Shown here piece after piece: positions 32,429-61,177 of a DNA stretch of 64,000 nt. The position numbers were made by a program, and so were the translations under genes. This DNA comes from Odontesthes bonariensis. Its lineage: Eukaryota > Chordata > Actinopteri > Atheriniformes > Atherinopsidae. Location: positions 37,129,711 through 37,193,710 of the forward strand of contig NC_134507.1 in assembly GCF_027942865.1 (NCBI RefSeq), in the 5' to 3' direction. Positions within the stretch are counted from its first letter, which is position 1. Every line of letters begins with the position of its first letter. The notes beneath the pieces are model-generated. The model was not told the origin of the DNA. It did not search any database and saw nothing but the letters and a program-made list of their open reading frames with translations.

Positions 32429-33162
32429 ATGAGGTGAGTAACTTCTAGTCTATCCCAGTGCTTCTAAGTGGTGGCACTGAACCTCTGCTGCCTTAAATGT
32501 CTGAGGCAAGCAGAACCTCATTTGGTCGCAGCATTACACTATGAATATGCAGTTAAGCTCAACAGGACTGGGCATGTTAAGGGGAGGTGGTGGTTGGACC
32601 CCACTGGTCTCTAAATGTACTCAGAACTTCATATGAGATGTCCCTGTTTCTGCAGGGTTTTGTGGATTTCTTGTGTGCTGATTGGAAGCATCGCCTGCAT
32701 TCCTGCACAAAGCGGTAAGCTGATCCCAATCAAAGCTCAGCAACTAAAAGCAGTTTAAATTGACTCGGGGTGTAAATGGAAAGCTGATCTTAATTCTCTG
32801 TTTCCTCACCCATGTATTCAGTTTATGGACAAGATCTATCTAAGCCAACATATCAGAAACAAACTGGAGCCAGTGGTTCTGGAGCTCAGCAGCAAGGTGC
32901 TCAGGGAGGTCAGTCTGGAGCTCCTGGCAGCAATTACCAGTCTGAAGATGGGAGCTGGAGCCTTTCATCTGACACCAGCGGCGAGGACGAGCCAGTCTTC
33001 ACTCCTGTGACCGACAAGGATCAAGTCTACGCTTACAAATCTCGGTCCCGGTACAACAAGAAGCGTGTGCTGTTCAGCCAGTTCCGCTACACCCCAACAG
33101 AATCTGAGCCAGACCACGGCAAAACCTCTCAGCACACGGTTCAAGTTCAGAGCGGCTTCTGA
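32429..33162 (+). CDS. Secreted cysteine-free Q/G/S-rich protein, gene A
   Basis: Coding exons are 32429-32433 (ATGAG|GTGAGT), 32656-32714 (CTGCAG|GG ... AGCG|GTAAGC) and 32822-33162 (TATTCAG|TT ...), joined in phases 2 and 1 to give 134 residues. The start MRVLWISCVLIGSIAC is a clear signal peptide. The mature part, from about VYGQDLSKPT, is Gln/Gly/Ser-rich (SGAQQQGAQGGQSGAPG), then acidic (SSDTSGEDEP), then basic and Tyr-rich (VYAYKSRSRYNKKRVLF), and has no cysteine. A 73-bp 3'UTR intron (33174-33246) precedes AATAAA at 33286. The protein should be exported and intrinsically disordered. I do not recognise the family; genes B, C and A' share its architecture. Function unknown. Confidence 0.85.
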
Positions 33163-33285
33163 GGATCTTTCTGGTGAGGCTCATTTTACTCTGCATGTGT
33201 GCTCTCTGTAGCTGCTGGTAGGTGACTGACTTTCTTTGTCTTGCAGATCTGCATATTCTAGAGGCATCACTGCTGCTACCGCTTG

Positions 33286-33291
33286 AATAAA
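33286..33291 (+). terminator. Polyadenylation signal of gene A
   Basis: AATAAA lies about 40 bp into the final untranslated exon; the same position in the duplicate is 61301-61306. Confidence 0.85.
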
Positions 33292-33432
33292 TGGCTTTAA
33301 CTTGAATACCTTGTTGCACCATCAAATGGCTCCTAGCTGTCTCTGGGTCATCCAGTTGTGGGTTGGAGGGGATAGTTGAGGGCCTGACAGGTTGACATGA
33401 CTTAATCCTATAAATAAGGTGTTGGCATTAAC

Positions 33433-33735
33433 TTAAGGACAGTTTCTGCTCAAAGGTGAGCTTGTGAAGGTCTTGACGGCTTCAGCTTGGAATGTATTCC
33501 CAACTAAAAATGGCTGAAAAGCCAACTGCAGCTCTCTGACAGCAGTGGGTAAAGGTGTGGCCTTGAGCTCTATCAGAAGATTCCACTGCTGCATATTGTG
33601 CTGGGGGGGGAAACCTTTCCACTCTGTAGCAGTCCTCACCCTACAGCTCTGGGTAAGGGCAGACCCATCAGATGCTGGGGCCATGTGAGACCTGGACAGT
33701 AGTTTCTGCAAGTCCATGACCGAGGATGGCTTCAT
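33433..33735 (-). other. 100-codon antisense ORF kept in both duplicate blocks
   Basis: An ATG-initiated minus frame (starting MKPSSVMDLQKLLSR) has an equally long counterpart at 61448-61750 with a handful of substitutions. No domain is recognised. The duplication is young, so retention of the frame is weak evidence of coding. Confidence 0.25.
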
Positions 33736-33978
33736 AACATCTTCTGTGGTTGCAAAGGTCTTGTACTCTGAATAATTGTAATGAAGCTTGTGCTACACAA
33801 ATCAAAAGATGTGGCAGCAACTTTTAGTGAAGTGGCTTGGCAACAAAATTTAAAGGCTCAATGTTGTCACTTACTCACTACCTGGAAGTAAGTTTGATCA
33901 GGTGGTGGGGCAAACATCTATTTTGTTCTACATTTGGATGCAAGAAGGCGAGCCAGGTGTTGGAATATATTCAGTAAA

Positions 33979-34314
33979 AGGTGGGGTATGAGATCTTGGA
34001 AAAACGGTTCCTGCAAGCTATATTTTTGAAAATACACAACCTTGCCTCTCCCTTCAGCCCACGCCTTCAAAACACATGAACGTGAGGGGGGCTGACGGTT
34101 GATTGGCATGTCAGAATCCAATAGAAGTAACTCTCATCATTACTCCTATTGGTCGGACATTTCCTCTTGCTACACCCTCTACAATGGACTAAAATATATA
34201 TATATATATTTTTTTTTCCCAAACATTCTATTTTAGTGGGTGCAATGGGGTCGTGAGGTGGTTTTCAGACAATATGATTAAAAAATGCTCCAGAAAACAT
34301 CTCATACCCCACCT
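33979..34314. mobile_element. MITE with AAGGTGGGGTATGAGAT termini
   Basis: Inverted ends AAGGTGGGGTATGAGAT enclose about 336 bp with no coding capacity. Its right half, inverted, is homologous to the MITE at 39261-39803 (CTGGAGCATTTTTT and CCCATTGCA motifs), so the two belong to one family in opposite orientation. The expected TTAA target is preserved on the right side only. Confidence 0.75.
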
Positions 34315-34318
34315 TAAG

Positions 34319-35221
34319 TCGTGAGCTGTACAACCACACAGTGGACTGTGCACAAAAGCGTCACTATCCTGTCTGGAACATGAACAAACATGTCTGATTA
34401 ATACTGGGCATAATGCAACATCAAATGTTCCATCTATATGTGAGAATCAGATGTCTTACCTGGTCGTCCCTACAGCAAGGACACTGCCTGTGGGGACCAC
34501 TTGCACATAGTCGACATATAATTAAAAGAAAAACTTCTGTGGACTTGTTTCCACACTTTAAGTCACTCACATTGTTAACCTGCAGGTTGCAGTTTAAATA
34601 TGAACATGATAAAGTCTGGTCTTTGTTGGATTTTATGAAAGTAATTCTGAGGACAGATGATGTGAACTACTGTAACAAATGTTAGTGTTCAGAATTAAAA
34701 CAACCTGGGAATTTAAATATTCTCATTTTCATAAATAAATATGAAGTTCAGGTGTGACAGTCAACATTTTACAGTAAAAAAGACTTTCTCAGAAACTTAG
34801 ACCCATATTAAAAAAGAGCATTATTCAAATAGACGCATTTTCCCTTTAAATGAGTTAAAAATGTAGCTTTAACTTCAGTGTATTTTCAGTACAGTTCCAC
34901 CTCACTGATGGCTGCTAAAGCCTCCACAGTACAAAGAACAGAAAACAGTCGCCTACAGACTATAAAGTGCTCAAATGTCACATTTCCCATGTTGGAAGTT
35001 TGCTGTGTCACAGGGAGTCTGTGGGAGTCTGTGGTTGTTCTCACAAGGCAACAAGTTTTCAGGAGGAATGATGGAAATCCACAGAAATCGTCAAGACAAA
35101 TTTGAGAAACACTTCCAGATATGAACAAAATGATGGCACAAGGTGCTTTAAACATTTAACCTCCTTTATGTCCTGTTTAATCAAGTTCATCTGAAATAAA
35201 TCTAAGATCTCCTCCATATCT
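34319..35221. other. No recognised gene
   Basis: Short frames only; no repeat family recognised. Confidence 0.5.
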
Positions 35222-36465
35222 TTCTGCTCTTGGCTCTCGGTGGAAGAGGTCGCATTTTCTCTCTGCTCCTCCCTCCCTTTTTTTGCCCTGCTTAGCCTGT
35301 CTGTGTCTGTGTCTTCTGAGCATCTTTTTACATATCAGACGAAGCCAAGTAAGATGGATTTGGTCAGCTGGGGTCTTAATGCTATTGATCAAATTTTTTC
35401 AACCGCGAAGATGGCAAAAGGACAAGTGTCTTGCCCCGACGGGACTTTCTTCGCTGGATACACGGAGGATGCATGGGGGAAGTGGCGCACCGTGTGTTTA
35501 GCGATGCTGGCTGTCGAGGACGCGGAAGACGTCTACATATTTGGATTTATGATACTCGGGTTCCTGCTGTTTGGAGTTGGACGATACGTGGCATTTTGTG
35601 AAATTAAGAGATCGTGGAAAGCGTTTGATGGGGTCACAAGAGCAATCAACGCTCAGACTGAGATGCTATGTGAGCAGAGTCGGAAGCTGGATGTGATCCC
35701 TGCGCAGGTTCGCAGGCTGGCTGAGATTCCTGGACTCAGAAGAGAAGTGGATTGACCTGGGAGAATGGTTGATTGATCGCTTGGACCGGGCGGAAAGGGT
35801 CCACATCCCACAATTCGGCTGAATTTGGGACTTCGCCATGAGATACCAGCAATGGACAAAAAGACAGAGAGCGCAATCAGTTGTCTGTCTGACCTAAATT
35901 AATTTTTATTCCAATCCGGCGCCCCACACTGGCCTTATGGCCAGCTGCAAAATCATTCTCCACGTTTGTTATGATAACATGATGCTCTTTCCCATGTGCT
36001 CCCCCTCCCCTCCTGACACTCCTGTGAGATTTGTTGTGGAACTGGCTGACATATTCCAACTTGTCAAGGACAATTGCCTGATCCAACTTTCTGTGCAGAC
36101 TTACTGAACAAACACACACGCATACACATACATGCTCATTTATAACACATGCAACTCCTCACCTCTTCACTGTCCCATTGCTTAAGGTGTTGTTATGTGT
36201 ATGTGATGCTTTTTCTGTGCTGAGGTTTTTTTGAGATCTCAGACCGTATCCTGATAAGGGTACAGTGTGAAGTATGATTTTTTTCCCTCCCCTCACCCAA
36301 TGTTGTTCCCCTTCCTTCTTATCTGGCGGCGCCTGCAAAGCAGGCCGCGTTGCCTGGTCACACTCTCTCTCCCCTGTCTGTTTCTGTGTTGTCTGCCCGT
36401 CTTGACCGAAACTGGAATTTCCCCTCGGGGATTAATAAAGTATAATTGATTGATTGATTGATATC
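35222..36465 (+). mobile_element. Retroposon-like element with Rex1-like 3' tail and a membrane ORF
   Basis: The 3' end reads GGAATTTCCCCTCGGGGATT then AATAAAGTATAATTGATTGATTG, closely resembling the tail of the Rex1-like copy at 1621-1660 and ending in a short tandem repeat (ATTG)n. No reverse transcriptase is present; instead a 133-codon ORF sits near the 5' end. The left boundary is a guess. It may be a non-autonomous element mobilised by a LINE through the shared tail. Confidence 0.55.
35354..35755 (+). CDS. 133-aa single-span membrane protein of unknown function
   Basis: The ATG at 35354 gives a single uninterrupted exon. The N-terminal part (MDLVSWGLNAIDQIFSTAKM) is amphipathic. A clear transmembrane segment, VYIFGFMILGFLLFGVGRYV, lies at about residues 61-80, followed by a basic, charged tail with EQSRKLDVIPAQVRRLAEIP. 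Two cysteines flank the span. Intact length and typical codon use suggest protein-coding, but the surrounding LINE-like tail suggests it belongs to a repeated element rather than a single-copy gene. I do not know this protein. Confidence 0.5.
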   Translation: MDLVSWGLNAIDQIFSTAKMAKGQVSCPDGTFFAGYTEDAWGKWRTVCLAMLAVEDAEDVYIFGFMILGFLLFGVGRYVAFCEIKRSWKAFDGVTRAINAQTEMLCEQSRKLDVIPAQVRRLAEIPGLRREVD

Positions 36466-36469
36466 ACTG

Positions 36470-37159
36470 AATAAAAGAGCAGCTCTGCATCATGTTGTCT
36501 CACGTTTCTACATCTCAGCTCAGATATTAATCTGAGCTTTAAACATCTCAGAGGGCGCAAAAGGCAGTTAGCGTGACTTTAGTAAGAATCCACCCTCTGC
36601 TATGTTCCAAACACATCCATGCTTCTAGATCCTCTGGATGAGAGAGCTGCAGAGCTCCTTATTCCTGCCAAGGAGTCAACATTATTTTAGAGTTATTTCC
36701 AGAACTCAGCAGGTTAACTTACTAAGACTCCAGTCTTATGTCACGCTGAGCTCACTTTTTTCCCCTTGAAACCCAACTAGCAGCTCCCACTAGTGAAGTG
36801 GACAAGTGATGTGTTGGACCCCGATTTCATGACTGTGACGTGTTTGTGACGTATTAGAATCGAGGTTATAACCTGGAGTCCTTCAGACCAAATCTCTGTC
36901 ACTCCCCTCACACTCCCCAGCCAGAGATTAGGGGCCCACAGTGATCTGCAGGACTTTGGTCCAGATGTTTAACACCGTATCTGACCAAGCGTGATTCACC
37001 TTCTTTAAAACATCCCATGTTCATTCCTCACATGTTGCAACAAACCTTTTTAAATGGGATGTCAGAAGTGTTCATTTTCAGAGCTGAATTGAATGCAGCA
37101 CGATCTGACTGGGTCCCAGGTGAGGTTTATGAGTGTAATTAGAGCAAGTAGAGCACCAA
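36470..37159. other. Upstream region of gene B
   Basis: No coding feature recognised. It should contain the distal promoter of gene B. Confidence 0.4.
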
Positions 37160-37165
37160 TATAAA
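37160..37165 (+). promoter_or_regulatory. TATA box of gene B
   Basis: TATAAA within CCAATATAAAGTC lies 123 bp upstream of the start codon, giving a predicted transcription start near 37190. Confidence 0.65.
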
Positions 37166-37282
37166 GTCAGCTGCAGCCTCAGATGAGTTACAGCACAAAT
37201 CTTCTCTCAACAGCAGTCACTAGATTGCTGTTTTTGACCAGTTTTATCGGAATTGTGTTGCTTCTGTTTTGTCTTGTTCAAC

Positions 37283-38237
37283 ATGTTGTTTAAGGTTTTC
37301 TTCAGGTGAGTCTTCATGTTTAATGGTTTAGGTTTTTGTTCTCCTATATACTAAAGTTTCTTTCTTTTCTTTTGAAATCCAAACAGGATTTCCTGGCTTT
37401 GTGTCCTGCTCTTCAGCATTGGAACATGTTATCCCCCCCAGAAAAGCAAGTATATCAACATTTAGGTGCAGTTTATATAAAGGCAGCCAACATGGGAAGT
37501 TGTTTAGTCTGGACATGCTCAACCCATGATGTTGGTAGGAATGAGAGAGAAGAGGGTCTGCAACTATATTAATCATGCAGCACCAAATCTTCCAATATAT
37601 TAGACTTCAGGTTTAATGACCCACTTGAACTGCAGATACTCCTTTAGCTTTGTTACTTGTTACTAAACATATTGGCAGTGTTACAGAGGCTACTGAGAGC
37701 ATGACTAACCATGCTGTCATACTTTGCCTTAACTAATTTCTGGGCTCAGGTCAAAACAGTGGATCCTCTGGCTCTGGTAGTAGCATGTCTGGGTCTGGCT
37801 ACGGCAGCAGCGGCTCCTCTGGGTCTGGCTACGGCAGCGGCACCTCTGGGTCTGGCTACGGCAGCGGCACCTCTGGGTCTGGCTACGGCAGCGGCTCCTC
37901 TGGGTCTGGCTACGGCAGCAGCGGCTCCTCTGGCTACGGCAGCGGCTCCTCTGGGTCTAATGCTGGCTTTACTGCGCAGGACGCAGACTTTGCCCGTTTC
38001 CTTGCTGCCCTAATGAACTTGAAGATCGACCGTTCTTTCCCACAGTCTGCCTGGACCTCCGACCAGGTCCCTAAGGACACATCTGAGATGCGCGCTGTAT
38101 ACCCTTCATCCCACGTCGTCCAGTCCAGCAATGGCTACCAACGAGCCCGCGACTCCAGTTCGTACGCCAAATACTCCCAGGATGCCTTTGACCACTTTGA
38201 TGCCAAGACTGGGTCTAAAGGGCAGAAGTTGTACTAA
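37283..38237 (+). CDS. Secreted cysteine-free G/S/Y-rich protein, gene B
   Basis: Exons are 37283-37305 (TTCAG|GTGAGT), 37387-37449 (AACAG|G ... AGCAA|GTATAT) and 37760-38237 (AAACAG|T ...), joined in phase 2 twice, giving 187 residues. The signal peptide contains RISWLCVLLFSIGTC, alignable with gene A's RVLWISCVLIGSIAC. The mature part starts with tandem GSGYGSGTS-like 9-residue units (37785-37968) and then a unique domain (FTAQDADFARFLAALMNLKI and AFDHFDAKTGSKGQKLY), with no cysteine. A 3'UTR intron (38239-38307) and AATAAA at 38363 follow. An alternative acceptor at 37749 would not keep the phase. The product should be an extracellular, flexible protein; function unknown. Confidence 0.8.
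37785..37968 (+). repeat. 27-bp coding repeat in gene B
   Basis: Units of the type TCTGGGTCTGGCTACGGCAG, with a variable GSGYGSG/TS-coding remainder, repeat about six times with length variation. Polymorphic copy number would be expected. Confidence 0.85.
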
Positions 38238-38362
38238 GGTAAAGCTGGACTAGTGTCTGAAGTATTGAGACTCCTGTATCAATACTGACCCCTTCTGTTT
38301 TCTGCAGGTGACTCTCATGGACACTTCCATGGAGATTCCAACATGTGGCTGAGCTCTGGCAA

Positions 38363-38368
38363 AATAAA
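38363..38368 (+). terminator. Polyadenylation signal of gene B
   Basis: AATAAA lies in a final untranslated exon beginning at 38308. Confidence 0.8.
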
Positions 38369-38384
38369 CTTGACCAATAATACG

Positions 38385-39106: not shown

Positions 39107-39114
39107 GGCTAAAG

Positions 39115-40244: not shown

Positions 40245-40299
40245 GGCTAAAAGCTTCCACTACCCTAAACTGGATACACTGAGTAAAGTAAATGGATGG

Positions 40300-44554: not shown

Positions 44555-44557
44555 GTA

Positions 44558-45944: not shown

Positions 45945-47476
45945 CTAGCGGGCACTTGGGAAGAACTTTTTCTGCTGCCCAGAACCATGGCTGTCAGTAA
46001 TATGCTCCTTCAAGTAGTGGACATCCTGAAAGTAGTCTTTGCCCTTCTCATGCTGCTGGCTGAAGGTGCTGTAGGTTCCAGAGGGGTACAAGCCGTACAA
46101 AAGCCTGTAGTCAAAGTTAGGAGATCCACCCACACCAAAGCGTGGCACCAGTACGGTTGCGGATCCCAGTCCAGACCCTTGGCGATTATCCGGGTAGCCG
46201 AATTCCTCCCTCTGCTGCTGGTAGTTCCCGAGTTCAGCTTCCTTCGTGACACTGGAGGTCTCCCCTGACTGGAGGACAGGGCCAGGTGGTGACAGAGGGG
46301 CTGCAGGGAGAACGTCAGTGAGGCTGAGGGCTTGGGCTGACGCATCCCCAAAGACTGAGGGAGCAATAGCCCACTGGGTTTCTGTGTGGAGACATTTCAC
46401 AATTAGTCCTTTTCACAGCAGAAGCTCTGATAGCACAGAGTCTTGACATCGAAACACGGCAGGTTTCTGCTTCATAATAGAGCTCGGCAAGATTGAAAAC
46501 ACCTTTAGGCTTCCAAACATATTTTTGGCCATCTATACTCCAAGCAGAAGATTTACCTTGTGGTCCAGGTTGGGCAGCTCCAGGTTGCAGAGCGCCAGCG
46601 TCAGATCCTACGTCAACAGGCACATAAGTGACAGTAGAGTATCCTGTTGCAGGCAGGCCAGAGCTCAAGCTGCTCAATGCTGAACCCGTCTGAACAGCCT
46701 GTGGGACACCAGAAGCTTGCACAGCCATTTGCACGGGCACAACGGAGCCAGAGCTGCTGAATCTTGGGTCTGCCTGAAGAGCACCTTGGACAAGGCCAGG
46801 AGCTTGGACAAGGCCGGGAGCTTGGACAAAACCGGGAGCTTGGACAAAACCGGGAGTTTGGACAAAACCGGGAGCTTGGACAAAACCGGGAGCTTGGACA
46901 AAACCGGGAGCTTGGACAAAACCGGGAGCTTGGACAAAACCGGGAGCTTGGACAAAACCGGGAGCTTGGACAAGGCCGGGAGCTTGGACAAAACCGGGAG
47001 CTTGGACAACCAGTTGCGTTGGCACAAGTGAGCCATAGCTGCTGAGTCTTGGGTCTGCCTGAAGAACAGGTTGACTTACACCAGAGACCAGCACAGGTGT
47101 CGCCATATAAGTGTTACTGGAAGCAGTGTTGGGCACGGTCACCGGGCGGCCAGCGGCTGCTCCCTGGTAAGAGCCAAAATTACCTGCAGCTCTTGTGCCG
47201 CTGCTGCTCTGGCCTGCTGATTTTGAACCTGGGTGTATGAGAACAAGTTTAGCAGAAGCTGATTCAAACAAGCATGTAATGTTTTACCACAACAGATGAT
47301 AGCACACCTTTAGTGGGAAAACCCCATGTAGCAGCAGTCAACAAGGCAAAGAGGGAAACCCTGAAATTATGTACAACAAAGAGTAAGAATGCAGTATTAA
47401 CTAATGTTTCCAATCAATCAAAAACTGTAAAAGGCAGCTTGTGCTTATACCTCAGGAAGAACCCAGCAGCTGTCAT
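45945..47476 (-). CDS. Secreted cysteine-free VQAPGF-repeat protein, gene C
   Basis: Four coding exons on the minus strand, 47476-47451 (CTGAG|GTATAA), 47360-47308 (TTTCAG|GG ... AAAG|GTGTGC), 47228-46503 (CCCAG|GT ... AAAG|GTGTTT) and 46381-45945 (CACAG|AA ...), join in phases 2, 1, 1 to encode 413 residues. The signal peptide is MTAAGFFLRVSLFALLTAA. The mature chain has about twelve FVQAPG hexapeptides, flanked by two related segments (QADPRLSSYGSLVP and QADPRFSSSGSVVP), then WSIDGQKYVWKPK, and a C-terminal domain with FDYRLLYGLYPSGTYSTF and GKDYFQDVHYLKEH. With the third intron spliced it lacks cysteine; reading through that intron would add two. Probably an extracellular repetitive structural protein; family unknown. 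Confidence 0.8.
46789..47010 (-). repeat. 18-bp coding minisatellite in gene C
   Basis: About twelve units of an 18-bp repeat (plus-strand form AAACCGGGAGCTTGGACA) encode FVQAPG. Units are nearly identical, with only GGCC/AACC-type and single-base variants, so the array is young or homogenised. Confidence 0.92.
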
Positions 47477-49852: not shown

Positions 49853-50299
49853 TTCCTCGCGTCAAGTGGAAGTTTCCAGTTTCACAAACCGAGGGGATTC
49901 CCTCTAACGCCTCTGCTGCCGACCGAGATTATGGATCAGAGAAATGACAGAACACTTACCCACAGAAGAATGACTAGATCAGCTATTTATAGCATGGGAT
50001 GGATATTCTGAGGACAAAGCTGCTGAAGAAACATTTCTTTCTGACAGGAGAAACAGACAGAAGAGTGGCAGCAGAGAGCGGCTGCTCCATGACTGAGGAC
50101 AATCAGACATACTGGGACATGTGGGAAAGGATCACAGTGTTCATGCTGTACATATCTGAGAACATCCACAGGAAGACACTTTATCATTTACATGTTGATT
50201 CTGCCTTTCAAAGTCAGATTCTTACTAGAATCCATGTTATACACTGTATGCTGACACGTAGAAATAATCCCATTCTGCTTGTAAGCAGCTCTTAATAGA

Positions 50300-51127: not shown

Positions 51128-51490
51128 ACTATTCTTGAGGTACAGAATCACAGAAACCACTTCCTGAGGTGGATCCAATTCCTGTTCTTTATTCTTTCAT
51201 CAGTTTTATGAACCATGTGGTGCTGTGGCTTAGTTGGTCAAAGTGCCTGTCTAGTAAACAGGAGATCCTGGGTTCAAATCCCAGCAGTGCCTTAAGATGT
51301 TATTATTTACGTCAACATGGTGCCATAACTGTTTACAGCAGTGCTTCAGGAGTGCTGGACTTCCAAAACAGTCTGTACTTGGAGGCACTTCATCTCATGG
51401 CTTTAAATATTCTTGAGGTACAGAAGATTGAACTGGGACTTAATCCAATGTTTTCACATATAGAGATAATTTGAATAACATCAAGCCCTG
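51128..51490 (+). repeat. tRNA-Thr repeat unit 1
   Basis: The unit runs from TTCTTGAGGTACAGAATCAC through the tRNA to AATAACATCAAGCCCTG. Matching units occur at 55481-55880, at 56350-56617 (continuing at 58688 after a Harbinger) and to about 59050. Confidence 0.9.
51219..51292 (+). tRNA. tRNA-Thr (AGT)
   Basis: The 74-nt gene has the full cloverleaf: acceptor GGTGCTG/CAGTGCC, D arm GGCTTAGTTGGTCAAAGTGCC, anticodon arm CTGTCTAGTAAACAG with AGT, and T arm CTGGGTTCAAATCCCAG. It closely matches vertebrate tRNA-Thr(AGT). It is the best preserved AGT copy of the array. Confidence 0.92.
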
Positions 51491-51689
51491 AGGGGTGTTC
51501 CTAGAAAGTAGCTAAAGAAAGCCAGGCTATACCTGGTAAGTGTCGCTTGAACTAGCACCATCTCCCAATTAAGCTTCAAGTCGTTCCTCGAAGACATTTT
51601 AGCTGCATCTCGGTGAGGCTAATCCAAGCGAGGCTTACATAGCCTAGCTTAGTGCGAGTGCACGAGGAACGTAAGAAGCCCTGACGAGT

Positions 51690-52390
51690 GGATGGTGGAA
51701 AAACGGAGATCTGTGTGAAAAGGAGAGCGAGACAAGTGCTGTTATTTTTTCGGCAGCTGAACAAATAATGCTGATGGAGCTGTATGAGGATTTTAAAAGT
51801 GTCATCACCAGAAATGGTAATACAGCTGCGATCAATAAAGCGAAGAAACGGCATGGCAAACAACTGCAGACAGACTAAACGCGTAAGTTCTGAAAGTTTC
51901 ATACCATTGACATTTATTTTACTGTCCTCATGTATTTATACTCTCCTCTTTGTGTTATAATGTGTTTACATAAAGCATGCTGAATTGTCTCTGTATGAGA
52001 TGTACAGCACAAATATACTGGCCCTGCTCACTTTATTAATAACCCAATAATCGACACGCATCATCATACTTTGTGACCATATTATCGTGAGTGTGAGACC
52101 CACATATTAATTTTTCACTGTTACATCTCAACAGGAGCAATCTTAGCAGCCAAAAGCGTACCTGGCAGCAGGTGAAGGTAAAGTACAGAAACATATTTCA
52201 GAGTGGTAAGTAGCCTTTGAAGAAATGTGTTTGTCCAATAAAGAGAGCGCCAAACTAGATACAAGAAACTGAAAATAAAAAAGATCAAGCTAGAGCTCAT
52301 GAAACTGGAGATGGATGTTAGTATAAATTCAGATAAAGGAGAATTCCGTGTTGTGAACTGTATTTAATTCTGTTTTCTCTCCACAGCTTG
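51690..52390 (+). pseudogene. Harbinger Myb/SANT-like protein
   Basis: Exon-like segments read SAAEQIMLMELYEDFKSVIT (about 51750-51810) and QKRTWQQVKVKYRNIFQS (about 52155-52205, ending at a GTAAGT donor), then KLKIKKIKLELMKLEMDV (about 52265-52320). These are the typical pieces of Harbinger-associated Myb-like proteins. Stops within the first segment make it non-functional. Confidence 0.7.
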
Positions 52391-52838
52391 AGAAACATGT
52401 AATAATAATTAAACAATTCAACACAACTTGAACTCAAACTTGTCATTATTGTACGGTTCATGCAATGTGTTAGAAATGTGTTTATACATTTATATTCACA
52501 GTGGGGTGCCATGACTTAAACGTGTGGAAAGTTATAAATCATCTCTGTCCATTTAGCCTTCTTACACTTGCTCTGACTTAAACTGCTACTGTGTCAATGC
52601 TAAATTATGAAAAGAAGTTCTAACTCAAAGGTCACAACAATAAGGATCAAAGGAAATATGTGTCCCTGTATAGGTCCCTCACTGTGTCAGGAGAAACTGA
52701 GTCCTTTCAGGCACTGGAACTCAACGAAGAAAAGATTTGAGCCTGAAAAGTTGTCCACAAGACAAAATGTATAAAATATGAAGTATACTATTAATTTAAG
52801 ATGGCTCTGTCAGAAGTCAGCCATGGTGCCTGAGAAGT

Positions 52839-53115
52839 TTAAGCAATGAACCAGTATTTAATTTGGCCAAAGGTCATTTCTATCCGTGCCCTTGTTTTAG
52901 CATGTGCATGTGCATGTGCATGTGCATGTGCATGTGCATGTGCATGTGCATGTGCATGTGCATGTGCATGTGCATGTGCATGTGCATGCCCTTGTTCCTG
53001 GATCAGGATATGGCGTGAGGAGGTACGGCCAGCATGCATAGCCTCTGTCCCCAAGCAGGACACCATTGAACTCTCCTGCAGAATAAGAGAAATGTTGGAT
53101 GGATATACATGTGTT
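52839..53115 (-). pseudogene. Harbinger transposase fragment with (CATGTG)n
   Basis: The minus strand reads GVLLGDRGYACWPYLLTPYP (the second catalytic Asp block) and, after a long His-Ala run from the microsatellite, TRARIEMTFGQIKYWF (the catalytic Glu block). The two are neighbours in normal transposases, so the microsatellite expanded between two catalytic blocks. Confidence 0.75.
52901..52988. repeat. (CATGTG)n hexanucleotide microsatellite
   Basis: About 14.5 perfect units interrupt the Harbinger transposase and produce artificial His-Ala or Ala-Cys frames on the two strands. Confidence 0.95.
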
Positions 53116-53635
53116 AAGACTTTAGGTAATTTGATGCAATATGTGCCTTATATGGCTATCTATAATAAAGTATGACGAGCACTTTAAATTCCTTAAGATG
53201 ACCTCTACACCTGACCTCTCATTACATTACCAAAATTCTGTCTATGCTACACCTTACTTCAAAAGTACACTCCTTCAGGTAAGTAAAATTCTTGCGCCTT
53301 GTGCAAACCTCTGTGCCAGTGAGGATGCTCGGAAGATCCTAGAATCATGAACTGATCCCAGCCATTTAGCCTCAGTGTTGGAAATGAAATGACCTCCATC
53401 ACAGATCATCTGTATGCACGGAGGATAGGAGTCAATGATGAGGTTTCACAGGGCATAAATGTAACATTGCTCAGCATTACTCAAAGGGGTTGATGTGGTG
53501 TTTTTCAAAATGAGAAATCCAGTTCAGAGTCTATGGACAATTATCCCCAAGTGTACCTGTACATTTAGGATATGGAAAAATGTTCGGTTTACATAGTCAG
53601 CCTCCACGGGTCCAGCAGGGGCCTGGACAATGTGA

Positions 53636-53821
53636 CAATGTTTAAATCCAGACTGAAAACAGTTCTATTTAGATGTGCATATGACACCTGAAAGTATTTT
53701 ATCTGCACTCTTCACTTTTAAATTAATTAATTAATGATTTTTCTGTTTTTTGGAATGATTTTATTGCCTTCTTGTGATTTTATGTAGCTGTAAAGCACTT
53801 TGAATTGCCTTGTGTACGAAT
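53636..53821 (+). mobile_element. L2-type LINE 3' end fragment
   Basis: From ATGTTTAAATCCAGACTGAA to the tail AATTGCCTTGTGTACGAATT it matches the inverted end of the LINE at 62372-62600. It is a strongly 5'-truncated copy. Confidence 0.85.
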
Positions 53822-54077
53822 TACATGGCACCCCATTAAACTCATTGGCACGTGGCCTCTGGAGCAGCTTCTTTGAATGAGTCTCTGTGAAGCTGCAGTG
53901 AGTGATGGTCATTGGTCGTGTTGTCCAGGTGGAGGCGCTGCAGGAGCAAGAAACAGCTGTGCTTTGTAAGGGAAAGAGAAGCCAGAGAAGCAGCGAGGAA
54001 GCTGCTAAAAGGTGTCAAAGCGTGTCGTTGTAGCGCGCGTGCAGTGTGTTGTGTGTGTGGAAGAGCAGAAAGAGTGT

Positions 54078-54377
54078 AAAAAGACTGAGTACCGCTGTAT
54101 TACTCAGGCTGCACTACAGCATCTATTCACAGGTGCGGTCCCACTACTGAGCGGCACGGGGGCTTTGCCCTGCTCCGTTTCCCACCTGGGCCGTTGCCCC
54201 CCTCCTTAGACAACCTGGTGTTCCCGGGCTACCCCAGGCGCACCATATCCATACCCAACTTAGTGCGGACACCCGATGGACATAGTCCTCTGCAGCTCAG
54301 AACTCCTGAGTTCAAGCGATCCAGCAGCCTCAGCCTCCCGGTAGCTTGGATTACAGGCACGCGCCCCCGCTCCCGGC
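54078..54377 (-). ncRNA. 7SL (signal recognition particle) RNA
   Basis: The minus strand starts GCCGGGAGCGGGGGCGCGTG, continues with CTGTAATCCAAGCTACCGGG and GGAGGCTGAGGC (the Alu domain), TCGGGTGTCCGCACTAAGTT, then the S-domain helix 8 region with GGAAACGGAGCAGG and CCCCGTGCCGCTCAGTAGTG, and ends in a TTTTT terminator at 54082-54078. This follows vertebrate 7SL RNA over its whole length of about 300 nt. The RNA is the scaffold of the SRP that targets secretory proteins to the ER. RNA polymerase III transcription is expected. It could be a recent retro-copy, but length and terminator suggest a complete gene. Confidence 0.93.
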
Positions 54378-54399
54378 GACAGGTGCTCTCATTCAAGCA

Positions 54400-54890
54400 G
54401 GTTTTGGGCTTTTTGATCCTGACGTCATCAGCGAGCTAATTTGCTGTCGAAGAACGAAATAAAGCATCTTTTAAACGTTAAAGGCTGATCAGTGATGAAA
54501 CATTTTGACAAAATATGACTGACTGATCAAGTTTGACGTTTGATATCGATGAAACATTTTTCTTTGGTGCTCCGTAAAACCTCAATTTCTGATCAACTTC
54601 AGAGGAGTCTCTCATTTCTGCTTCTTTAACACTGACAGATCAGCTCACCAAACATTAAAAAGGAATGCCTCTAAATGTCCTCTATCAGGTGTCTCCTTTT
54701 TCTACAGTTTTATTTCAGATGTAGACACATTAGCCTGTTCTCAGTCATGTAGAAAAGCAGTTCTCTTCTTATGGGAATCATCTTTATCACATTGAAACAC
54801 GCTGTTTAAATACACAGATAGAAGCATTTTCAGTGCCAAATAGTCAAAGTTTGCTTTGTTAAAGGAGACATATTTTACCTCTTTAAACAA
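54400..54890. other. 7SL upstream flank; no recognised gene
   Basis: This is the 5' flank of the minus-strand 7SL gene. The first 60 bp (CTGACGTCATCAGCGAGC, with a TGACGTCA CRE/ATF site at about 54420) may be its upstream promoter element, as 7SL genes are known to use an ATF site. Confidence 0.45.
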
Positions 54891-55109
54891 GTTAGAATTG
54901 GTCTATGGGCTATACAAAACATGTTCATGAAGTTCTTTGCACAAAATCACTCTCACATAAAGAGATTTCACCAGCTCTATTCTTGCCAGTTTCAGTCTCT
55001 CCCAAATTGAGCCGTTTAAAGGGCTCTGTCACTTTTATGCAAATAAGCTGTGAATTAAGGGTTCATTTGTTTTCAGTGCAGAGCTTCTGCAGTCTCCAGC
55101 CTGACTCAC

Positions 55110-55394
55110 CTGTGGTGCGTTTCTGGAGACCCAGGTGTCCAGCAGCAGCTCCAGTCTCTGCCGGTGATACCTCCCGGTGGTTTTCACAGCCACGAACAGG
55201 TCAGCCTGTGTGAGCCGCTCACCGCTCTCCTCTCCCGGGCCAGCCGCCTGAAATAAGTTGAGCCGGCAGCTCCTTCTGGTGTCCGCCAGTGAGCAGAGCA
55301 TCCCGGCCACCAGCCGACAGGTGACCGCGGCGACAGCAGCGCGAGGTCCCGCTGAGCTGAAGGCGAGCCTCTGTCCCCCGGCAGGCTTCCACAT
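55110..55394 (-). pseudogene. Orphan first exon of a Fringe-like glycosyltransferase
   Basis: From an ATG at 55394 the minus strand encodes 95 codons ending at CCACAG|GTGAGT (phase 0). The end reads LFVAVKTTGRYHRQRLELLL then DTWVSRNAPQ, the signature exon 1 end of Fringe proteins (Notch-modifying beta-1,3-GlcNAc-transferases of the Golgi), where FIAVKTT...RLDLLLDTW is conserved. The N-terminal part is Ala/Arg-rich with only a weak hydrophobic stretch, so a signal anchor is doubtful. No other Fringe exon lies downstream in the window. The fragment is spliced into a tRNA-Thr repeat and bordered by an inverted 26-bp copy of its own sequence. Confidence 0.65.
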
Positions 55395-55480
55395 GTTCAC
55401 TGCGTGGATGGGTTCACCACTTCGCTCATGGACAGAAAAGAAGTGTTTTCTCAACAGCGGGACCTCGCGCTGCTGTCGCC
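55329..55480. repeat. 26-bp perfect inverted repeat at the Fringe/tRNA-unit junction
   Basis: 55329-55354 (GGCGACAGCAGCGCGAGG...) recurs inverted at 55455-55480. The second arm is followed directly by TTAAGATGTT of the tRNA-Thr unit. Confidence 0.95.
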
Positions 55481-55880
55481 TTAAGATGTTATTATTTACA
55501 TCAACATGGTGCCATAACTGTTTACAGCAGAGCTTCAGGAGTGCTGGACTTCCAAAACAGTCTGTACTTGGAGGCACTTCATCTCATGGCTTTAGTTATT
55601 CTTGAGGTACAGAAGATTAAACTGAGACTTAATCCAATGTTTTCACATATAGAGATAATTTGAATAACATCATGCCCTGTTTTATGCAGAGATCACATGA
55701 ATTTCGGAAATAAATCACAAAAACCACTTCCTGAGGTGGATCCAGTTCCTGCTCTTTATTCCTTCATCAGTGTTATGAACCATGTGGCGCTGTGGCTTAG
55801 TTGGTCAAAGTGCCTGGTGAGTAAACAGGAGATCGTGGGTTCAAATCCCAGCATTGCCTGTGGTCCTTCAGAGCTAACTA
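55481..55880 (+). repeat. tRNA-Thr repeat unit 2, chimeric left side
   Basis: It begins with the sequence that follows the tRNA in unit 1, lacks that tRNA, and runs on into a second tRNA at 55786. Confidence 0.85.
55786..55859 (+). tRNA. tRNA-Thr (AGT), degraded copy
   Basis: The anticodon is still AGT, but the anticodon stem has a GG/AC mismatch (CCTGGTGAGTAAACAGG) and the acceptor a C-T mismatch (GGCGCTG/CATTGCC). It is probably a pseudo-tRNA. Confidence 0.75.
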
Positions 55881-56349
55881 TGACTTAGCACATAAAACAG
55901 CTTATTATCAGGGTTCTACTAAATGCTTCTCACTGGTCCACTTAATAAAAGTGCATATAAATAGCCCACAGCTTTTAAAGTGTCATTTATGCCTATTTTA
56001 TGCTTTCGGAGTGTAATTTTACTCCGTTAACATAACAAGTCAATTGGTTAGGGTACAGTACGGTGGAGGTTCTCCTCCTGTCACACTACATAACATCAAA
56101 ATGAACATACAAACAGTGAAATAGTCAGAGTTAGCGTAAAAGCTGAGGGCAGGACGTCATTTCCTCAAAATATGAAGTGTAAAATAATACACAAAAGCAT
56201 TAAAAAACCTTGTAAAAACAGGGTCAATGACTTGGCGTGTAATGAGTACACCGCTTCATGAGATCTGGCTGTAACTGGTGAAAGTGCCTTCCTCATGAAC
56301 ACCAGGGTCTGAGTTTAAAACCCAACAATATCTGCAAGATACGATGAAG
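55881..56349. other. Spacer with a tRNA-like relic
   Basis: 56262-56333 (GATCTGGCTGTAACTGGTGA...) aligns loosely with tRNA-Thr but has lost the stems; I treat it as a relic of another unit. Confidence 0.4.
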
Positions 56350-56478
56350 TTTTGAACCAATTGGAGGCACTTCTACTCATGGCTTTAACTATTCTTGAGG
56401 TACAGAATCACAAAAACCACTTCCTGAGGTGGATCCAGTTCATGCTCTTTATTCTTTCATCAGTTTTTGGAACCATGT

Positions 56479-56552
56479 GGTGCTGTGGCTTAGTTGGTCA
56501 AAGTGCCTGTCTTGTAAACAGGAGATCCTGGGTTCAAATCCCAGCAGTGCCT
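56479..56552 (+). tRNA. tRNA-Thr (TGT), by anticodon change
   Basis: This 74-nt gene is identical to the AGT copy at 51219-51292 except for one base: anticodon position 34 is T, giving TGT (CTGTCTTGTAAACAG). All stems are intact. It would decode ACA and still be a threonine tRNA. Confidence 0.9.
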
Positions 56553-57161
56553 TAAGGTGTTACTATTTACATCAACATGGTGCCATAACTGTTTACAGCA
56601 GTGCTTCAGGAGTGCTGGGGCCTCATGTACAAAGGGTGCGTACGCACCTTTTCACGTCAACGATCAGATGTATCAAGAACGAAAAGACCGTGGAAATGTG
56701 CGGTGCCTCACGGCAGCTTCAGGGCTGGCGTACGCACGTTTCTGCAGCTGCTGATTCTTTGGCGACACCTAAGGTGATGTTGGGAAACTGTTATAATAAA
56801 TAAATGTGAAAACAATTTGTCCTCAGACAGTGATGTGCACATTTGAGATGGATGAACAATTAATACTGATCAACAATTAACACACCCATGTGTCTCCATT
56901 TACACGAGTGGATATGAAAGCAGCGCAAAGTGGTGCAATGCATACCATTAAAAACAATGGCTTCTTTAAAAGTATTAGAAGACTTTGCAAATGGTGCAAT
57001 TCAAAGAGAGCGTGTGTTCACTACAACAGAGAGGATTAGCTGGCATATAATGGTGACACATTAGCTGTTTTGAGGGAAATCCTCCTCGAACTTTGCGCAG
57101 AGCTGCGGCCGGCGTTGGAGCGCAACACAGCGAGGAGCCATGCGCTGCCTGTGCTCACAGG

Positions 57162-57300
57162 TGATGTGCACACTGGGGTTCCAACCGGAGCATTCCAGGG
57201 GTGATGTGCACACTGGGGTTCCAACCGGAGCATTCCAGGGGTGATGTGCACACTGGGGTTCCAACCGGAGCATTCCAGAGGTGATGTGCACACTGGGGTT
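57162..57300. repeat. 40-bp minisatellite in the Harbinger
   Basis: About 3.5 units of GTGATGTGCACACTGGGGTT plus CCAACCGGAGCATTCCAGGG repeat nearly perfectly just before the transposase helix-turn-helix. Confidence 0.93.
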
Positions 57301-57720
57301 CCTATAGCAACCGGGGCATTCCAGAGGGAGCTGGCCAACCGATTGGGACTGTGCCAGTCTACTCTGAGCCGAGCCATGCCAGCCGTGTGGGACAGAATTA
57401 TCCGCATCTCAGCCACGTATATCAAGTTCCCAACAGGCCAACATTAAAGCTCAATTTGAAGCGAGAGCCGGTTTTGTAATCGGAGCTATCGACTGCGCAC
57501 ACATTGCTATAAAAGCGCCATCACATGATGAATTTGTATGTTAACAGGAAACATTTTCATTCGATCGATGTACAGATCATATGTGATGCGTAAATGCAAT
57601 TAACCAAAAGTGTGGCGAGGTGGCCTGGTTCAACGCACGATTCATACATTCTGAGTAACAGCATCGTTGGGAACAGACTTACAGGGCGGCACTGTGCGTG
57701 ATGGCTGGCTTCTTGGTGAG
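57300..57720 (+). pseudogene. Harbinger transposase, N-terminal half
   Basis: Frames read FQRELANRLGLCQSTLSRAM (helix-turn-helix), ATYIKFPTGQ, then FVIGAIDCAHIAIKAPSHDE (first catalytic Asp), NRKHFHSIDVQIICDA and VARWPGSTHDSYILSNS. Frame changes separate them and the last catalytic block is missing. Confidence 0.85.
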
Positions 57721-58191
57721 TAACTTCATTCCTGTTTTGTCCTAATATTATTCCTTGTGACGCGCATTGAGTATGTGCGCCCCCAGTTTCTATCCCGTCT
57801 TCACAGCATCAGTCGGTGGTTAAAGTTAGTTTGTTGCTGTTTTTTGCTGGTTAAACTCCAGTTTAAGATCTTTCTAACAAGCCCCTGATCGTCTCTGTGG
57901 GCAAATGTTAATAACCCTGTGCGTAAAGTGTGAAAGGTCTTAATCAGCCTCACCTTTTCCCCGGCGCACTTCTGCACGTTACTGTATGAACACGTTGTTG
58001 TGAGTTACACAAAAACATCGGTATTTAGCTTGGGGGTAATCAGAGTCACCCACATGAGCTCCCACCACCCCATGAGAGAGCAGTGTCACCCATAGTTGCC
58101 CCGACTCTCTGTTCAAACAGTCGGTCACCCCCCTACCCGACTGTTTTGGCCACACTGCGGCGGTGGGCAGCCAGTCTGCTTCACATCCACC

Positions 58192-58410
58192 TTAATTTTG
58201 GACCACTTCTTCTTCACCTCTGCTTGTGAGGCTTCTCAGACCCCCCAGCATTGACAGCCTCGCACAGGCTCTCCCACCCACTCCTCTTAGTTTGATGCTT
58301 ATGCCGGAGGACACCGTGTCAAAGAACAAATTTTTTTGGGCCTCCACTTCAGAAAGTAGCACCGACATATCGCTTTCAGTGTAATTTTTCTTTTTTCCCG
58401 TCTTACTCAT
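58192..58410 (-). pseudogene. Harbinger Myb/SANT-like protein, N-terminus
   Basis: MSKTGKKKNYTESDMSVLLS then EVEAQKNLFFDTVSSGIS matches the start of the homologous protein at 19780; afterwards the frame degenerates. Confidence 0.75.
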
Positions 58411-58687
58411 GCTTTTTTTCTTTATTTTCTGATCGTGCAGAGAGGGGAATCGCAGGTGCAGGGCTCATTTAAATAGGATTTGCGTATTTAAGTAGGGGCG
58501 TGGACAGGGAGGAGTCGGCTGCTCCGATATGTGCGCTCAATTCCACGTTGATTGGGATGTACAAACGATATGTGCTTGGATACATGCGTGCGCACAGATT
58601 CGTACATCCGACGTTGGAGGGCATTTGGGTTTGAGCGTACGCCAAGTTTCAGTAGGAAATCCACGCAAGTCTTTGTACATGAGGCCC

Positions 58688-59050
58688 CTGGACTTCCAAA
58701 ACAGTCTGTACTTGGGGGCACTTCATCTAATGGCTTTAGTTATTCTTGAAGTACAGAAGATTGAACTGGGACTTAATCGAATGTTTTCACATTTGCAGAT
58801 TATTTGAATAATATCATGCCCTGTTTTATGCAGAGATCACATGAATTTCGGAAATAAATCACAAAAACCACTTCCTGAGGTGGATGCAGTTCCTGCTCTT
58901 TATTCCTTCATCAGTTTTATGAACCATGTGGTGCTGTGGCTTAGTTGGAAAAAGTGCCTGTCTAGTAAATAGAAGATCCTGGGTTCAAATCCCTGCAGTG
59001 CCTCAAGTCCATCATAGTGTGCTATGACTTAGTATAAGAAACTGGTTGTT
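58688..59050 (+). repeat. tRNA-Thr repeat unit 3 (right part) and unit 4
   Basis: After the Harbinger the unit resumes at CTGGACTTCCAAAACAGTCT and leads into another tRNA at 58930. Confidence 0.85.
58930..59003 (+). tRNA. tRNA-Thr (AGT), pseudogene-like
   Basis: The anticodon AGT is kept, but the D loop (TTGGAAAAAG), anticodon stem (CCTGT against ATAGA) and T stem (CCTGGG against CCCTG) carry mismatches. It is probably inactive. Confidence 0.75.
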
Positions 59051-59363
59051 AGCAGGGTTCTACTCAATGCTTTGCATTGTTGCTCTTCATCAAATGATGG
59101 ACCTTTCAATGAGCATCATGGTTATTGTGAGTCTGTTCTTTGGTCAGACTTGATGAAAACGTTTTTAGAAATCACAGTTAGTTTTGAGAGAGTCTCTGGA
59201 CCTTGTTTATGAAATAAAAAAGATGGAAGCAACACTGACATTGAGTGAGCTGAACTGAAAGTTGTAGGATGTTTCTATTCGATGATCGAACGTACCTTCC
59301 GAGGGTATCGTTTTGCTATCTGTGGCCTGCGGCGCTCGTGTGACGCCTAAAGTTGCAAACCCT

Positions 59364-59435
59364 GGCTCGTTGGTCTAGGGGTATGATTCTCGCTTTGGGT
59401 GCGAGAGGTCCTGGGTTCAAATCCCGGACGAGCCC
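59364..59435 (+). tRNA. tRNA-Pro (TGG)
   Basis: A 72-nt cloverleaf: acceptor GGCTCGT/ACGAGCC, D arm TTGGTCTAGGGGTATGATT, anticodon arm CTCGCTTTGGGTGCGAG with TGG, and T arm CTGGGTTCAAATCCCGG with one U-G pair. It is nearly identical to vertebrate tRNA-Pro(TGG). It is not part of the threonine repeat unit. Confidence 0.95.
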
Positions 59436-59493
59436 TTCCCTGGTTTATTGGCCTTGTATCCCCGCTTTGCTTTGAAATCTATGCATGACCTAA

Positions 59494-60210
59494 GGCCCCG
59501 TTTACACGATAGGAAAATGCAGATTTTTTCCTGCGGTTTTGCCTCTCATTTACACCAAAACCCCGTTTTTATCACAGAAAACGATTATTTCTAAAACCTC
59601 CGGCCAAAGTGGAGATTTCTGATAACGCCGGTTATGTGTTGCCGTCTTCAACTGGGAGAAACGGCGTTTTAGGTTCTTAAACGTCACATTATGCGCCAGA
59701 AAATGCTTAACGTCATGCGAGCGCCTTATGTTTACAGTTTGTTTGGCTACTGATCAGGATTATCATGGATGATGTTAAAGTTCTACTAATTGTGCAAACG
59801 ATTCTGGCCTTATTATATTTGCCACTCCTAACCTGCTCGCACATTTCAAAATAGAGGAGCACCACTCTTCCGTGGCCGCTCCTGCGCCCAGTATGCACTG
59901 ACTGTCTATATTTTCCTCTTATTGCCTCCAGTTTTGTTGTGATACTTGCTCGCGTTATCTCCTCCTTCACATGAGGAAAGTCCTTGATTCTGAGGATTTT
60001 GATTGGCTTGCATGGCTTTATTCCTTTCCCTACACTGCCACCAATAGGTTTGGCATAGTTATTATGGCGCTTGACGGCGTATTTATGCGGGTTGATGTAA
60101 ATGACAAGTTTTTTGAAAACGATGTTGTGTGCACGATGTTATTTTGGAAAACGGAGGGGGGGGGGGGGATATTCGTTTCTCTAAATACCCGGCTATGTGT
60201 AAATGTGGCC
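59494..60210. mobile_element. Harbinger-type short element, TAA target
   Basis: Ends GGCCCCGTTTACAC and inverted GGCCACATTTACAC are flanked by TAA (59491-59493, 60211-60213). One internal ORF remains. Confidence 0.75.
59713..59970 (-). pseudogene. Myb/MADF-like protein of the short Harbinger
   Basis: The frame reads ITTKLEAIRGKYRQSVHTGR then SGHGRVVLLYFEMCEQV, typical for the DNA-binding accessory protein of Harbinger-type elements. It lacks the start region. Confidence 0.5.
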
Positions 60211-60444
60211 TAAGACTACGTGTCAACTCGTGGACAACTATGTTAGTCCATTGTTGCCAGTTAACTGCAGCCTCGCACCTTTCAGCAGCAGCTGTTACCG
60301 CTGAGCAATCAGTTCCCTCTGCACTGAGGATCATATGAAAGCAGCTCCTGCAGGTTCAGGTTAGTGTCACAGGACTCTGAACTTTGTGTTAGTGCAGTTT
60401 GTCAGGAGCAGGTCCCAGGCAAGCTTTAATTATATTGCACCAGA

Positions 60445-61177
60445 ATGAGGTGAGTAACTTCTAGTCTATCCCAGTGCTTCTAAGTGGTGGCACTGAACCT
60501 CTGCTGCCTTAAATGTCTGAGGCAAGCAGAACCTCATTTGGTCGCAGCATTACACTATGAATATGCAGTTAAGCTCAACAGGACTGGGCATGTTAAGGGG
60601 AGGTGGTGGTTGGACCCCACTGGTCTCTAAATGTACTCAGAACTTCATATGAGATGTCCCTGTTTCTGCAGGGTTTTGTGGATTTCTTGTGTGCTGATTG
60701 GAAGCATCGCCTGCATTCCTGCACAAAGCGGTAAGCTGATCCCAATCAAAGCTCAGCAACTAAAAGCAGTTTAAATTGACTCAGGTGTATATGGAAGGCT
60801 GATCTTAATTCTCTGTTTCCTCACCCATGTATTCAGTTTATGGACAAGATCTATCTAAGCCAACGTATCAGAAACAAACTGGAACCAGTGGTTCTGGAGC
60901 ACAGCAGCATGGTGCTCAGGGAGGTCAGTCTGGAGCTCCTGGCAGCAATTACCAGTTTGAAGATGGGAGCTGGAGCCTTTCATCTGACACCAGCGGCGAG
61001 GACGAGCCAGTCTTCACTCCTGTGGCCGACGAGGATCAGGTCTACGCTTACAAATCTCGGTCCCGCTACAACAAGAAGCGTGTGCTGTTCACCCAGTTCC
61101 GCTACACCCCAACAGAATCTGAGCCAGACCACGGCAAAACATCTCAGCACAAGGTTCAAGTTCAGAGCGGCTTCTGA
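60445..61177 (+). CDS. Secreted cysteine-free Q/G/S-rich protein, gene A'
   Basis: Exons 60445-60449, 60672-60730 and 60837-61177 use the same splice sites as gene A and give 134 residues. The signal-peptide exons are identical to gene A. In the last coding exon I count about twelve substitutions, seven of them amino-acid changing (A to T, Q to H, S to F, T to A, K to E, S to T, T to K). No stop or frame change exists, the 3'UTR intron is kept and AATAAA is at 61301, so both copies look functional. The upstream region is duplicated too, so shared regulation is expected. Confidence 0.85.

What the first reader, a model, noticed from the sequence alone, without database searches (positions are those of the whole stretch)
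32429..61177. A clustered family of secreted, cysteine-free repeat proteins (genes A, B, C, A')
Four genes within 29 kb encode small exported proteins whose mature parts lack cysteine and are dominated by low-complexity repeats: Q/G/S-rich (A, A'), GSGYGSG (B) and FVQAPG (C). They differ completely in repeat type yet share signal-peptide similarity and gene structure. I do not recognise any as a described family. Rapidly evolving disordered secreted proteins of this kind often build extracellular coats, adhesives or mineralised matrices. That role is inference.
Basis: partly seen in the sequence, partly recalled or inferred. Interest (0 to 1): 0.88.

Follow-up and report, generated by a model that had tools for sequence, protein, structure and literature searches.

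The report
Giant arrays of secreted repeat-protein genes
Three kinds of gene for small, low-complexity proteins sit together in this fish genome, and the same gene trio recurs along two stretches of about 8.7 and 11 million bases, with at least 400 main-exon copies counted; the proteins are predicted to be secreted and would likely form an outer coat, most likely that of the egg or its sticky attachment threads.

Summary
The four genes are real, but they are a fragment of something far larger. A, A', B and C share one gene plan: a split leader (intron phases 2 then 1), a main part without cysteine, and an intron just after the stop codon. A is Pfam DUF1373 (uncharacterised); C and B are two further fish families without a Pfam match. 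All 39 named fish hits of A are atherinomorph genera; C is found there plus one distant perciform; B was found in Menidia and one unnamed contig. The window lies inside giant arrays on contigs C2 (32.0-40.7 Mb) and C16 (24.2-35.5 Mb) holding at least 132 A, 138 B and 136 C main-exon copies. On C2 the complete unit is a 22-kb palindrome A> B> C< B< A<. The searched exon part is full and open in 128 of 136 C and 128 of 138 B copies, and C is under purifying selection, so the amplification looks like dosage rather than debris. The long FVQAPG run belongs to this copy and one sister; seven other C copies have 1-4 units. The plan resembles mammalian seminal-clot (REST) genes. Best inference: bulk secreted, cross-linkable matrix proteins, most likely of the egg coat or its filaments. 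No expression evidence was available.

The parts
32429..33162 (+). Gene A coding exons 32429-32433 | 32656-32714 | 32822-33162 (DUF1373, 134 aa); 3'UTR intron 33174-33246, last exon from 33247 with AATAAA at 33286-33291
   Evidence: 34 of 34 complete copies keep GT-AG at both coding introns
37283..38237 (+). Gene B coding exons 37283-37305 | 37387-37445 | 37750-38237 (189 aa); intron 2 is GC-AG; 3'UTR intron 38239-38307, AATAAA at 38363-38368
37767..37958 (+). GSGYGSG-coding tandem repeat of B (period 27/54); its length varies between copies
45945..47476 (-). Gene C coding exons 47476-47451 | 47360-47308 | 47228-46557 | 46381-45945 (395 aa); 3'UTR intron 45922-45855, AATAAA at 45809-45804
46785..47009 (-). 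18-bp tandem repeat coding FVQAPG, 12 units; of nine copies read, only this one and the copy at C2:38.38 Mb have it long
60445..61177 (+). Gene A' coding exons 60445-60449 | 60672-60730 | 60837-61177 (DUF1373, 134 aa); 3'UTR intron 61189-61261
32224..33920 (+). Duplicated block around A, 97.6% identical to 60240-61933
60240..61933 (+). Duplicated block around A'

Best explanation
A, B and C are three families of cysteine-free low-complexity proteins, predicted to be secreted and disordered, that likely descend from one ancestral gene with a conserved split-leader plan, are co-amplified to at least 400 main-exon copies in two giant arrays, and would likely be poured out in bulk and cross-linked into an extracellular coat, most likely the egg envelope or its attachment filaments. 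Shown: gene plan, homologues, array structure, copy numbers (lower bounds), open frames in the exon parts searched, purifying selection on C. Inferred: secretion, disorder, common ancestry of C with A and B, dosage as the reason for amplification. Untested: tissue (ovary or follicle), cross-linking (by transglutaminase through Q and K, or through tyrosine, since there is no cysteine), and the egg-coat role. The leader exons and the intron after the stop stay as a chassis while the main exon is free to change its repeat. Units then spread as 22-kb palindromes (C2) or as C-B-A half units (C16), so output would scale with copy number.
For: Same gene plan in A, A', B and C. hhalign reports only leader alignments between the families: A-B P=1.1e-5 (probability 82%), B-C P=3.5e-4 (37%), with permutation control. 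Arrays: A exon 3 at 76 places on C2 and 56 on C16; C exon 4 at 51 and 85; B tail at 67 and 71. Openness: C exon 4 at least 143 of 145 residues matched and no stop in 128 of 136 array rows (rows); B tail 128 of 138; A 32 of 34 complete blocks full length, open and correctly spliced, the other two with a 36-bp gap, one of which reads through to the usual end. Selection on C exon 4: dN/dS 0.38 (bootstrap 0.22-0.67, 15 copies on C2) and 0.15 (0.08-0.31, 12 copies on C16). Unit architecture in 7 fetched units (outer A copies partly). Cysteine-free from residue 28 on in 35 of 41 A, 45 of 50 C and 2 of 2 B homologues. Spread: 39 of 39 named fish hits of A are atherinomorph genera (six of nine genera looked up; Ataeniobius, Xenotaenia and Ilyodon recalled). 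[quoted passage not shown]
Against: No transcript, proteome or tissue evidence was found. Goodeids carry A and C, and poeciliids carry C, although many of these bear live young without filamentous eggs (recalled). C has one distant hit outside Ovalentaria (Zoarces, E=6e-10). In Oryzias and Nothobranchius the A and C rows name contigs of different length, so the cluster may not be ancestral. A-C leader similarity is weak (hhalign P=0.019, probability 2.5%) and not significant under permutation. 5' flanks, first introns and 3'UTR exons show no convincing similarity: best p=0.023 of nine tests. B dN/dS interval includes 1 (0.08-1.05); A is 0.36 and 0.48 within arrays but 1.31 between them, and its exon 3 is not clearly more conserved than its introns. 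No N-glycosylation sequon and no S-x-E enrichment.
Confidence: 0.45

Rival explanations
1. Same secreted matrix proteins, but for another surface: skin or gill mucus, a nest or spawning-fluid gel, or seminal fluid as in mammalian REST genes.
For: The plan resembles REST genes: leader exon, main exon ending just after the stop, 3' non-translated exon, fast-changing products some of which lack cysteine (PMC7556508, passages). Presence in goodeids and poeciliids.
Against: The near restriction to egg-filament fishes is unexplained by a general mucus role; no expression data either way.
Confidence: 0.3
2. Passenger amplification: the 22-kb unit spreads as a selfish or recombination-prone segmental duplication and the genes are along for the ride.
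For: Palindromic units, star-like recent copies; A and B selection estimates are weak.
Against: The searched exon part is complete and open in 128 of 136 C and 128 of 138 B array rows, though 42 C candidates were not scored; dN/dS of C is well below 1; two contigs are affected. A Menidia A protein cluster holds 64 member sequences.
Confidence: 0.15
3. Dosage amplification of a cold- or stress-protection secreted protein, as antifreeze genes amplify in fish (recalled).
For: Large tandem arrays of small secreted proteins are known for fish antifreezes (recalled).
Against: No Pfam antifreeze match; the families occur in warm-water killifish and rainbowfish genera (habitat recalled).
Confidence: 0.04
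4. SCPP-type mineralised-matrix genes.
For: Clustered, apparently secreted, low-complexity proteins.
Against: Intron phases are 2 and 1, not all 0 as in SCPP genes (definition recalled); S-x-E not enriched.
Confidence: 0.03

Closest known systems
Pfam PF07117 (DUF1373)
   Same: A matches model positions 1-144 of 145 at 116.9 bits, cut-off 28.9
   Different: Pfam calls it a protein of unknown function; B and C do not match it; the name occurs in 0 papers of the library searched
REST / semenogelin seminal-clot genes of mammals
   Same: Leader exon, a main exon that ends just after the stop, a separate 3' non-translated exon, repeat-rich fast-changing products, some without cysteine (PMC7556508, passages)
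   Different: Here the leader is split over two exons (phases 2 and 1), sequence homology was not tested, and copy number is in the hundreds
Insect chorion gene clusters (silkmoth; recalled, no call)
   Same: Large multigene clusters of small structural egg-coat proteins
   Different: Another lineage and other proteins; the egg role here is inferred only
Fish ZP/choriogenin egg-envelope proteins
   Same: Proposed place of action
   Different: No ZP domain in A, B or C

Membership tests
DUF1373 (PF07117), gene A | Score above the curated cut-off | tested here: met
   116.9 bits, cut-off 28.9
DUF1373, genes B and C | Score above the curated cut-off | tested here: not met
   No PF07117 match at E<=1
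REST (semenogelin) genes | Leader exon / main coding exon ending just after the stop / 3' non-translated exon | tested here: inconclusive
   Main exon and 3' exon fit (plan in PMC7556508), but the leader is split in two exons and C has one extra intron
REST (semenogelin) genes | Sequence homology in leader and 3' exons to mammalian REST/PI3 | not tested
   No comparison run
REST (semenogelin) genes | Seminal-vesicle expression and transglutaminase cross-linking | not testable with these tools
   No expression or assay data
SCPP (mineralised matrix) | All coding introns phase 0 (recalled) | tested here: not met
   Phases 2 and 1 in A, A', B, C
SCPP (mineralised matrix) | Fam20C-type S-x-E motifs enriched (recalled) | tested here: not met
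   0-1 per protein, p 0.58-1.0
ZP-domain egg-envelope proteins | ZP domain | tested here: not met
   No match at E<=1

The most novel reading that the evidence does not exclude
An unrecognised vertebrate 'egg silk': three sister families of cysteine-free repeat proteins, built on one interchangeable leader chassis, mass-amplified as palindromic gene kits over about 20 Mb on two contigs to spin the adhesive chorionic filaments that mark the atherinomorph egg.
Probability: 0.3. Interest if true: 0.9.

Novelty: new variant of a known kind. Interest (0 to 1): 0.78.

Why it matters
In the searches run here on egg filaments I saw no listing that names a gene for fish egg filaments, though I read passages of only five papers in all. 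These three families give concrete candidates, testable at once in medaka, Fundulus or Menidia. A multi-gene palindromic kit repeated in hundreds of mostly open copies on two contigs would also be an extreme vertebrate case of dosage by gene amplification, and a possible parallel to mammalian seminal-clot genes: fixed leader, free main exon.

Tried and rejected
SCPP genes: rejected on intron phase and motif content. ZP proteins: no domain. Pfam Cytadhesin_P30 for C (32.3 bits, cut-off 40) and CFAP143 for B (12.7 bits, cut-off 27): below cut-off, taken as low-complexity matches. Shared promoter or UTR motifs between A, B and C: nothing beyond p=0.023 in nine tests. McDonald-Kreitman-like count for A between arrays: 3 fixed replacement, 0 silent against 31 and 14 polymorphic, p=0.55, no conclusion. 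Papers by name: DUF1373, six LOC numbers and the automatic product names each gave 0 papers. On egg filaments, searches gave 0 papers and 1 unrelated paper; some searches gave listings. I saw passages of PMC10140178, PMC9330664, PMC3644299, PMC9348626 and PMC7556508 and no paper in full. A medaka early-oogenesis gene screen (Kanamori 2000, seen only in reference lists) may be where medaka DUF1373 sequences came from; that is a guess and the paper is not held.
Full report
WHAT IS THERE. The window (G000:C2:37129711-37193710, a 945-Mb genome in 187 contigs) carries gene A, gene B and, on the other strand, gene C, plus A', a second copy of A. Exon joins were made by hand and checked by translation and splice signals. 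Every gene has a tiny first coding exon ending in AG before a G (phase 2), a second exon that finishes the leader (phase 1), the main exon, and an intron that starts 1 to 22 bases after the stop codon. C has one extra phase-1 intron. B's second intron uses a GC donor (GCAAGT) in 12 of 12 copies looked at, which explains why a GT-only reading puts B out of phase. A and A' lie in blocks 32224-33920 and 60240-61933 that are 97.6% identical.

FAMILIES. A is DUF1373. The protein search returned 46 rows: 39 named fish rows, all from Menidia, Oryzias, Fundulus, Kryptolebias, Nothobranchius, Ataeniobius, Crenichthys, Xenotaenia and Ilyodon; 6 unnamed; and 1 labelled Acinetobacter baumannii on a 381-base contig, evidently fish DNA. 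C returned 53 rows: 49 from atherinomorph genera (several of these lineages recalled), two without a name, one without an organism at E=0.12, and one remote Zoarces; only the 7996 candidates sharing most words were scored. B (residues 94-187 only) returned 3 rows: two Menidia and one unnamed. The search finds only relatives sharing exact 5-residue words, so absence elsewhere is not proof. Lineages were looked up for Menidia, Zoarces, Kryptolebias, Oryzias, Nothobranchius, Crenichthys, Fundulus and Melanotaenia. In Menidia, rows of A, B and C name a contig of the same length (30,213,143, presumably one contig), and rows of B and C another (24,035,035); in Oryzias and Nothobranchius rows of A and C name contigs of different length.

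RELATION OF A, B AND C. hhalign reports one alignment per pair, each in the leader: A-B P=1.1e-5, B-C P=3.5e-4, A-C P=0.019. With leader columns permuted, A-B (score 30.1) is reached in 0 of 200, B-C (18.3) in 0 of 100 and 2 of 100 (the second keeping hydrophobic and other columns apart), and A-C (10.2) in 6 of 100 and 11 of 100 (25, 3 and 44 leaders of A, B and C). The common plan, including the intron after the stop, is the better argument for C. Flanks and UTR exons gave no clear similarity.

THE ARRAYS. Searches of the whole genome with DUF1373, C exon 4 and the B tail each listed 150 rows (of 261, 192 and 152 candidates), so counts are lower bounds, nearly complete for B. A: 136 exon-3 places after I dropped 14 leader-only, overlapping or short rows; 76 on C2 (32.03-40.70 Mb), 56 on C16 (24.64-35.49 Mb), 3 on C12, 1 on C29. 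C: 51 on C2 and 85 on C16 in the arrays, 14 rows elsewhere. B: 67 on C2 and 71 on C16, 12 rows elsewhere. Sum in the arrays: 406 rows, broken ones included. Four fetched C2 units read A> B> C< B< A< over about 22 kb (two outer A copies lie just outside the stretches and are taken) and align at about 97% identity; three C16 units carry C> B< A<, one of them with an A> on the left. Genome-wide, 64 of 85 C copies on C16 have B within 15 kb on the downstream side only, and 22 of 51 on C2 have B on both sides. The window's own unit lacks the second B and has A' in direct orientation; the rows near C2:38.38 Mb and, mirrored, 39.16 Mb show the same arrangement. A tree of 28 array copies of C exon 4 plus one C18 paralogue is star-like, with copies grouped by contig (0 of 500 shuffles as low) but few supported forks.

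ARE THE COPIES KEPT OPEN? C exon 4: 128 of 136 array rows match at least 143 of 145 residues without a stop, 8 are partial or carry a stop (rows); 42 candidates were not scored. B tail: 128 of 138, with 6 stop-bearing and 4 partial. A: 34 complete blocks, all with canonical splice sites; 32 full length and open, two with a 36-bp gap that the script did not translate, of which one reads through to the usual end and the other was not read. The A copies were the eight best-ranked rows, those in the fetched units, and others that I chose from listed rows, so they lean towards intact copies. C dN/dS: 0.38 (0.22-0.67) within C2 and 0.15 (0.08-0.31) within C16, 0.22 between, 27 copies, 60 bootstrap rounds. 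B 0.25 (0.08-1.05) within C2 and 0.79 between. A 0.36 and 0.48 within arrays but 1.31 between them; the MK-like count is not significant. In A, exon 3 is not clearly more conserved than its introns, a result against strong constraint on A.

WHAT VARIES. The B repeat region and the C repeat differ in length between copies; the FVQAPG run has 12 units here and in the copy at C2:38.38 Mb and 1-4 in seven others. The better conserved parts are the leaders and the C-terminal parts.

HOW IT LIKELY WORKS. A hydrophobic leader plus a cysteine-free, Q/S/G/Y-rich, predicted disordered product (AlphaFold mean pLDDT 47.2 and 52.5 on medaka members) suggests a secreted matrix protein that cannot form disulphides and would need other cross-links. 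Cysteine is absent from residue 28 on in 35 of 41 A, 45 of 50 C and 2 of 2 B homologues; eight fragmentary or contaminant rows and the weak C row were left out. Hundreds of mostly open copies suggest need for bulk output. The spread matches fishes whose eggs bear adhesive filaments (PMC3644299, passage; PMC9348626, passages, for atherinids). The egg role is therefore the leading inference, not a result. The nearest design known to me is the mammalian REST locus (PMC7556508, passages); no membership is claimed.

LIMITS. No RNA or proteome data could be reached. Three paper searches by name returned 0 papers, which covers open-licence papers only. No other fish genome could be searched, so the Menidia comparison rests on protein rows.

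Noticed in passing
7108-8676: Open frame with 16 C2H2 zinc-finger stretches (84-bp repeats), as in fish ZNF arrays.
   Followed up: partly
35354-35752: Open frame of 133 aa from ATG between A and B with no Pfam match at E<=0.01; possibly part of a mobile element.
   Followed up: partly
51219-59435: Four tRNA-Thr predictions and one tRNA-Pro between C and A', perhaps tRNA-derived repeats.
   Followed up: no
764-1603: Reverse-transcriptase fragment of a LINE-like element.
   Followed up: partly
52900-52988: Perfect hexamer repeat GCATGT, about 15 units.
   Followed up: no
G000:C2:15691814 and 15697358: An isolated B plus C pair at 79% and 85% identity, C with a stop: perhaps a relic of an older unit outside the array.
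   Followed up: no
G000:C18:20.45 Mb and 9.83-10.50 Mb; C13:16.41-16.43 Mb: Divergent low-copy C paralogues (60-72%) on C18 and B-like paralogues (46%) on C13, possible ancestral loci.
   Followed up: partly
protein P0029: A DUF1373 record labelled Acinetobacter baumannii on a 381-base contig is almost certainly medaka-type fish DNA contamination.
   Followed up: no
proteins P0002, P0102, P0101: Menidia clusters at 90% identity hold 64, 10 and 8 member sequences, hinting at amplification there too.
   Followed up: no
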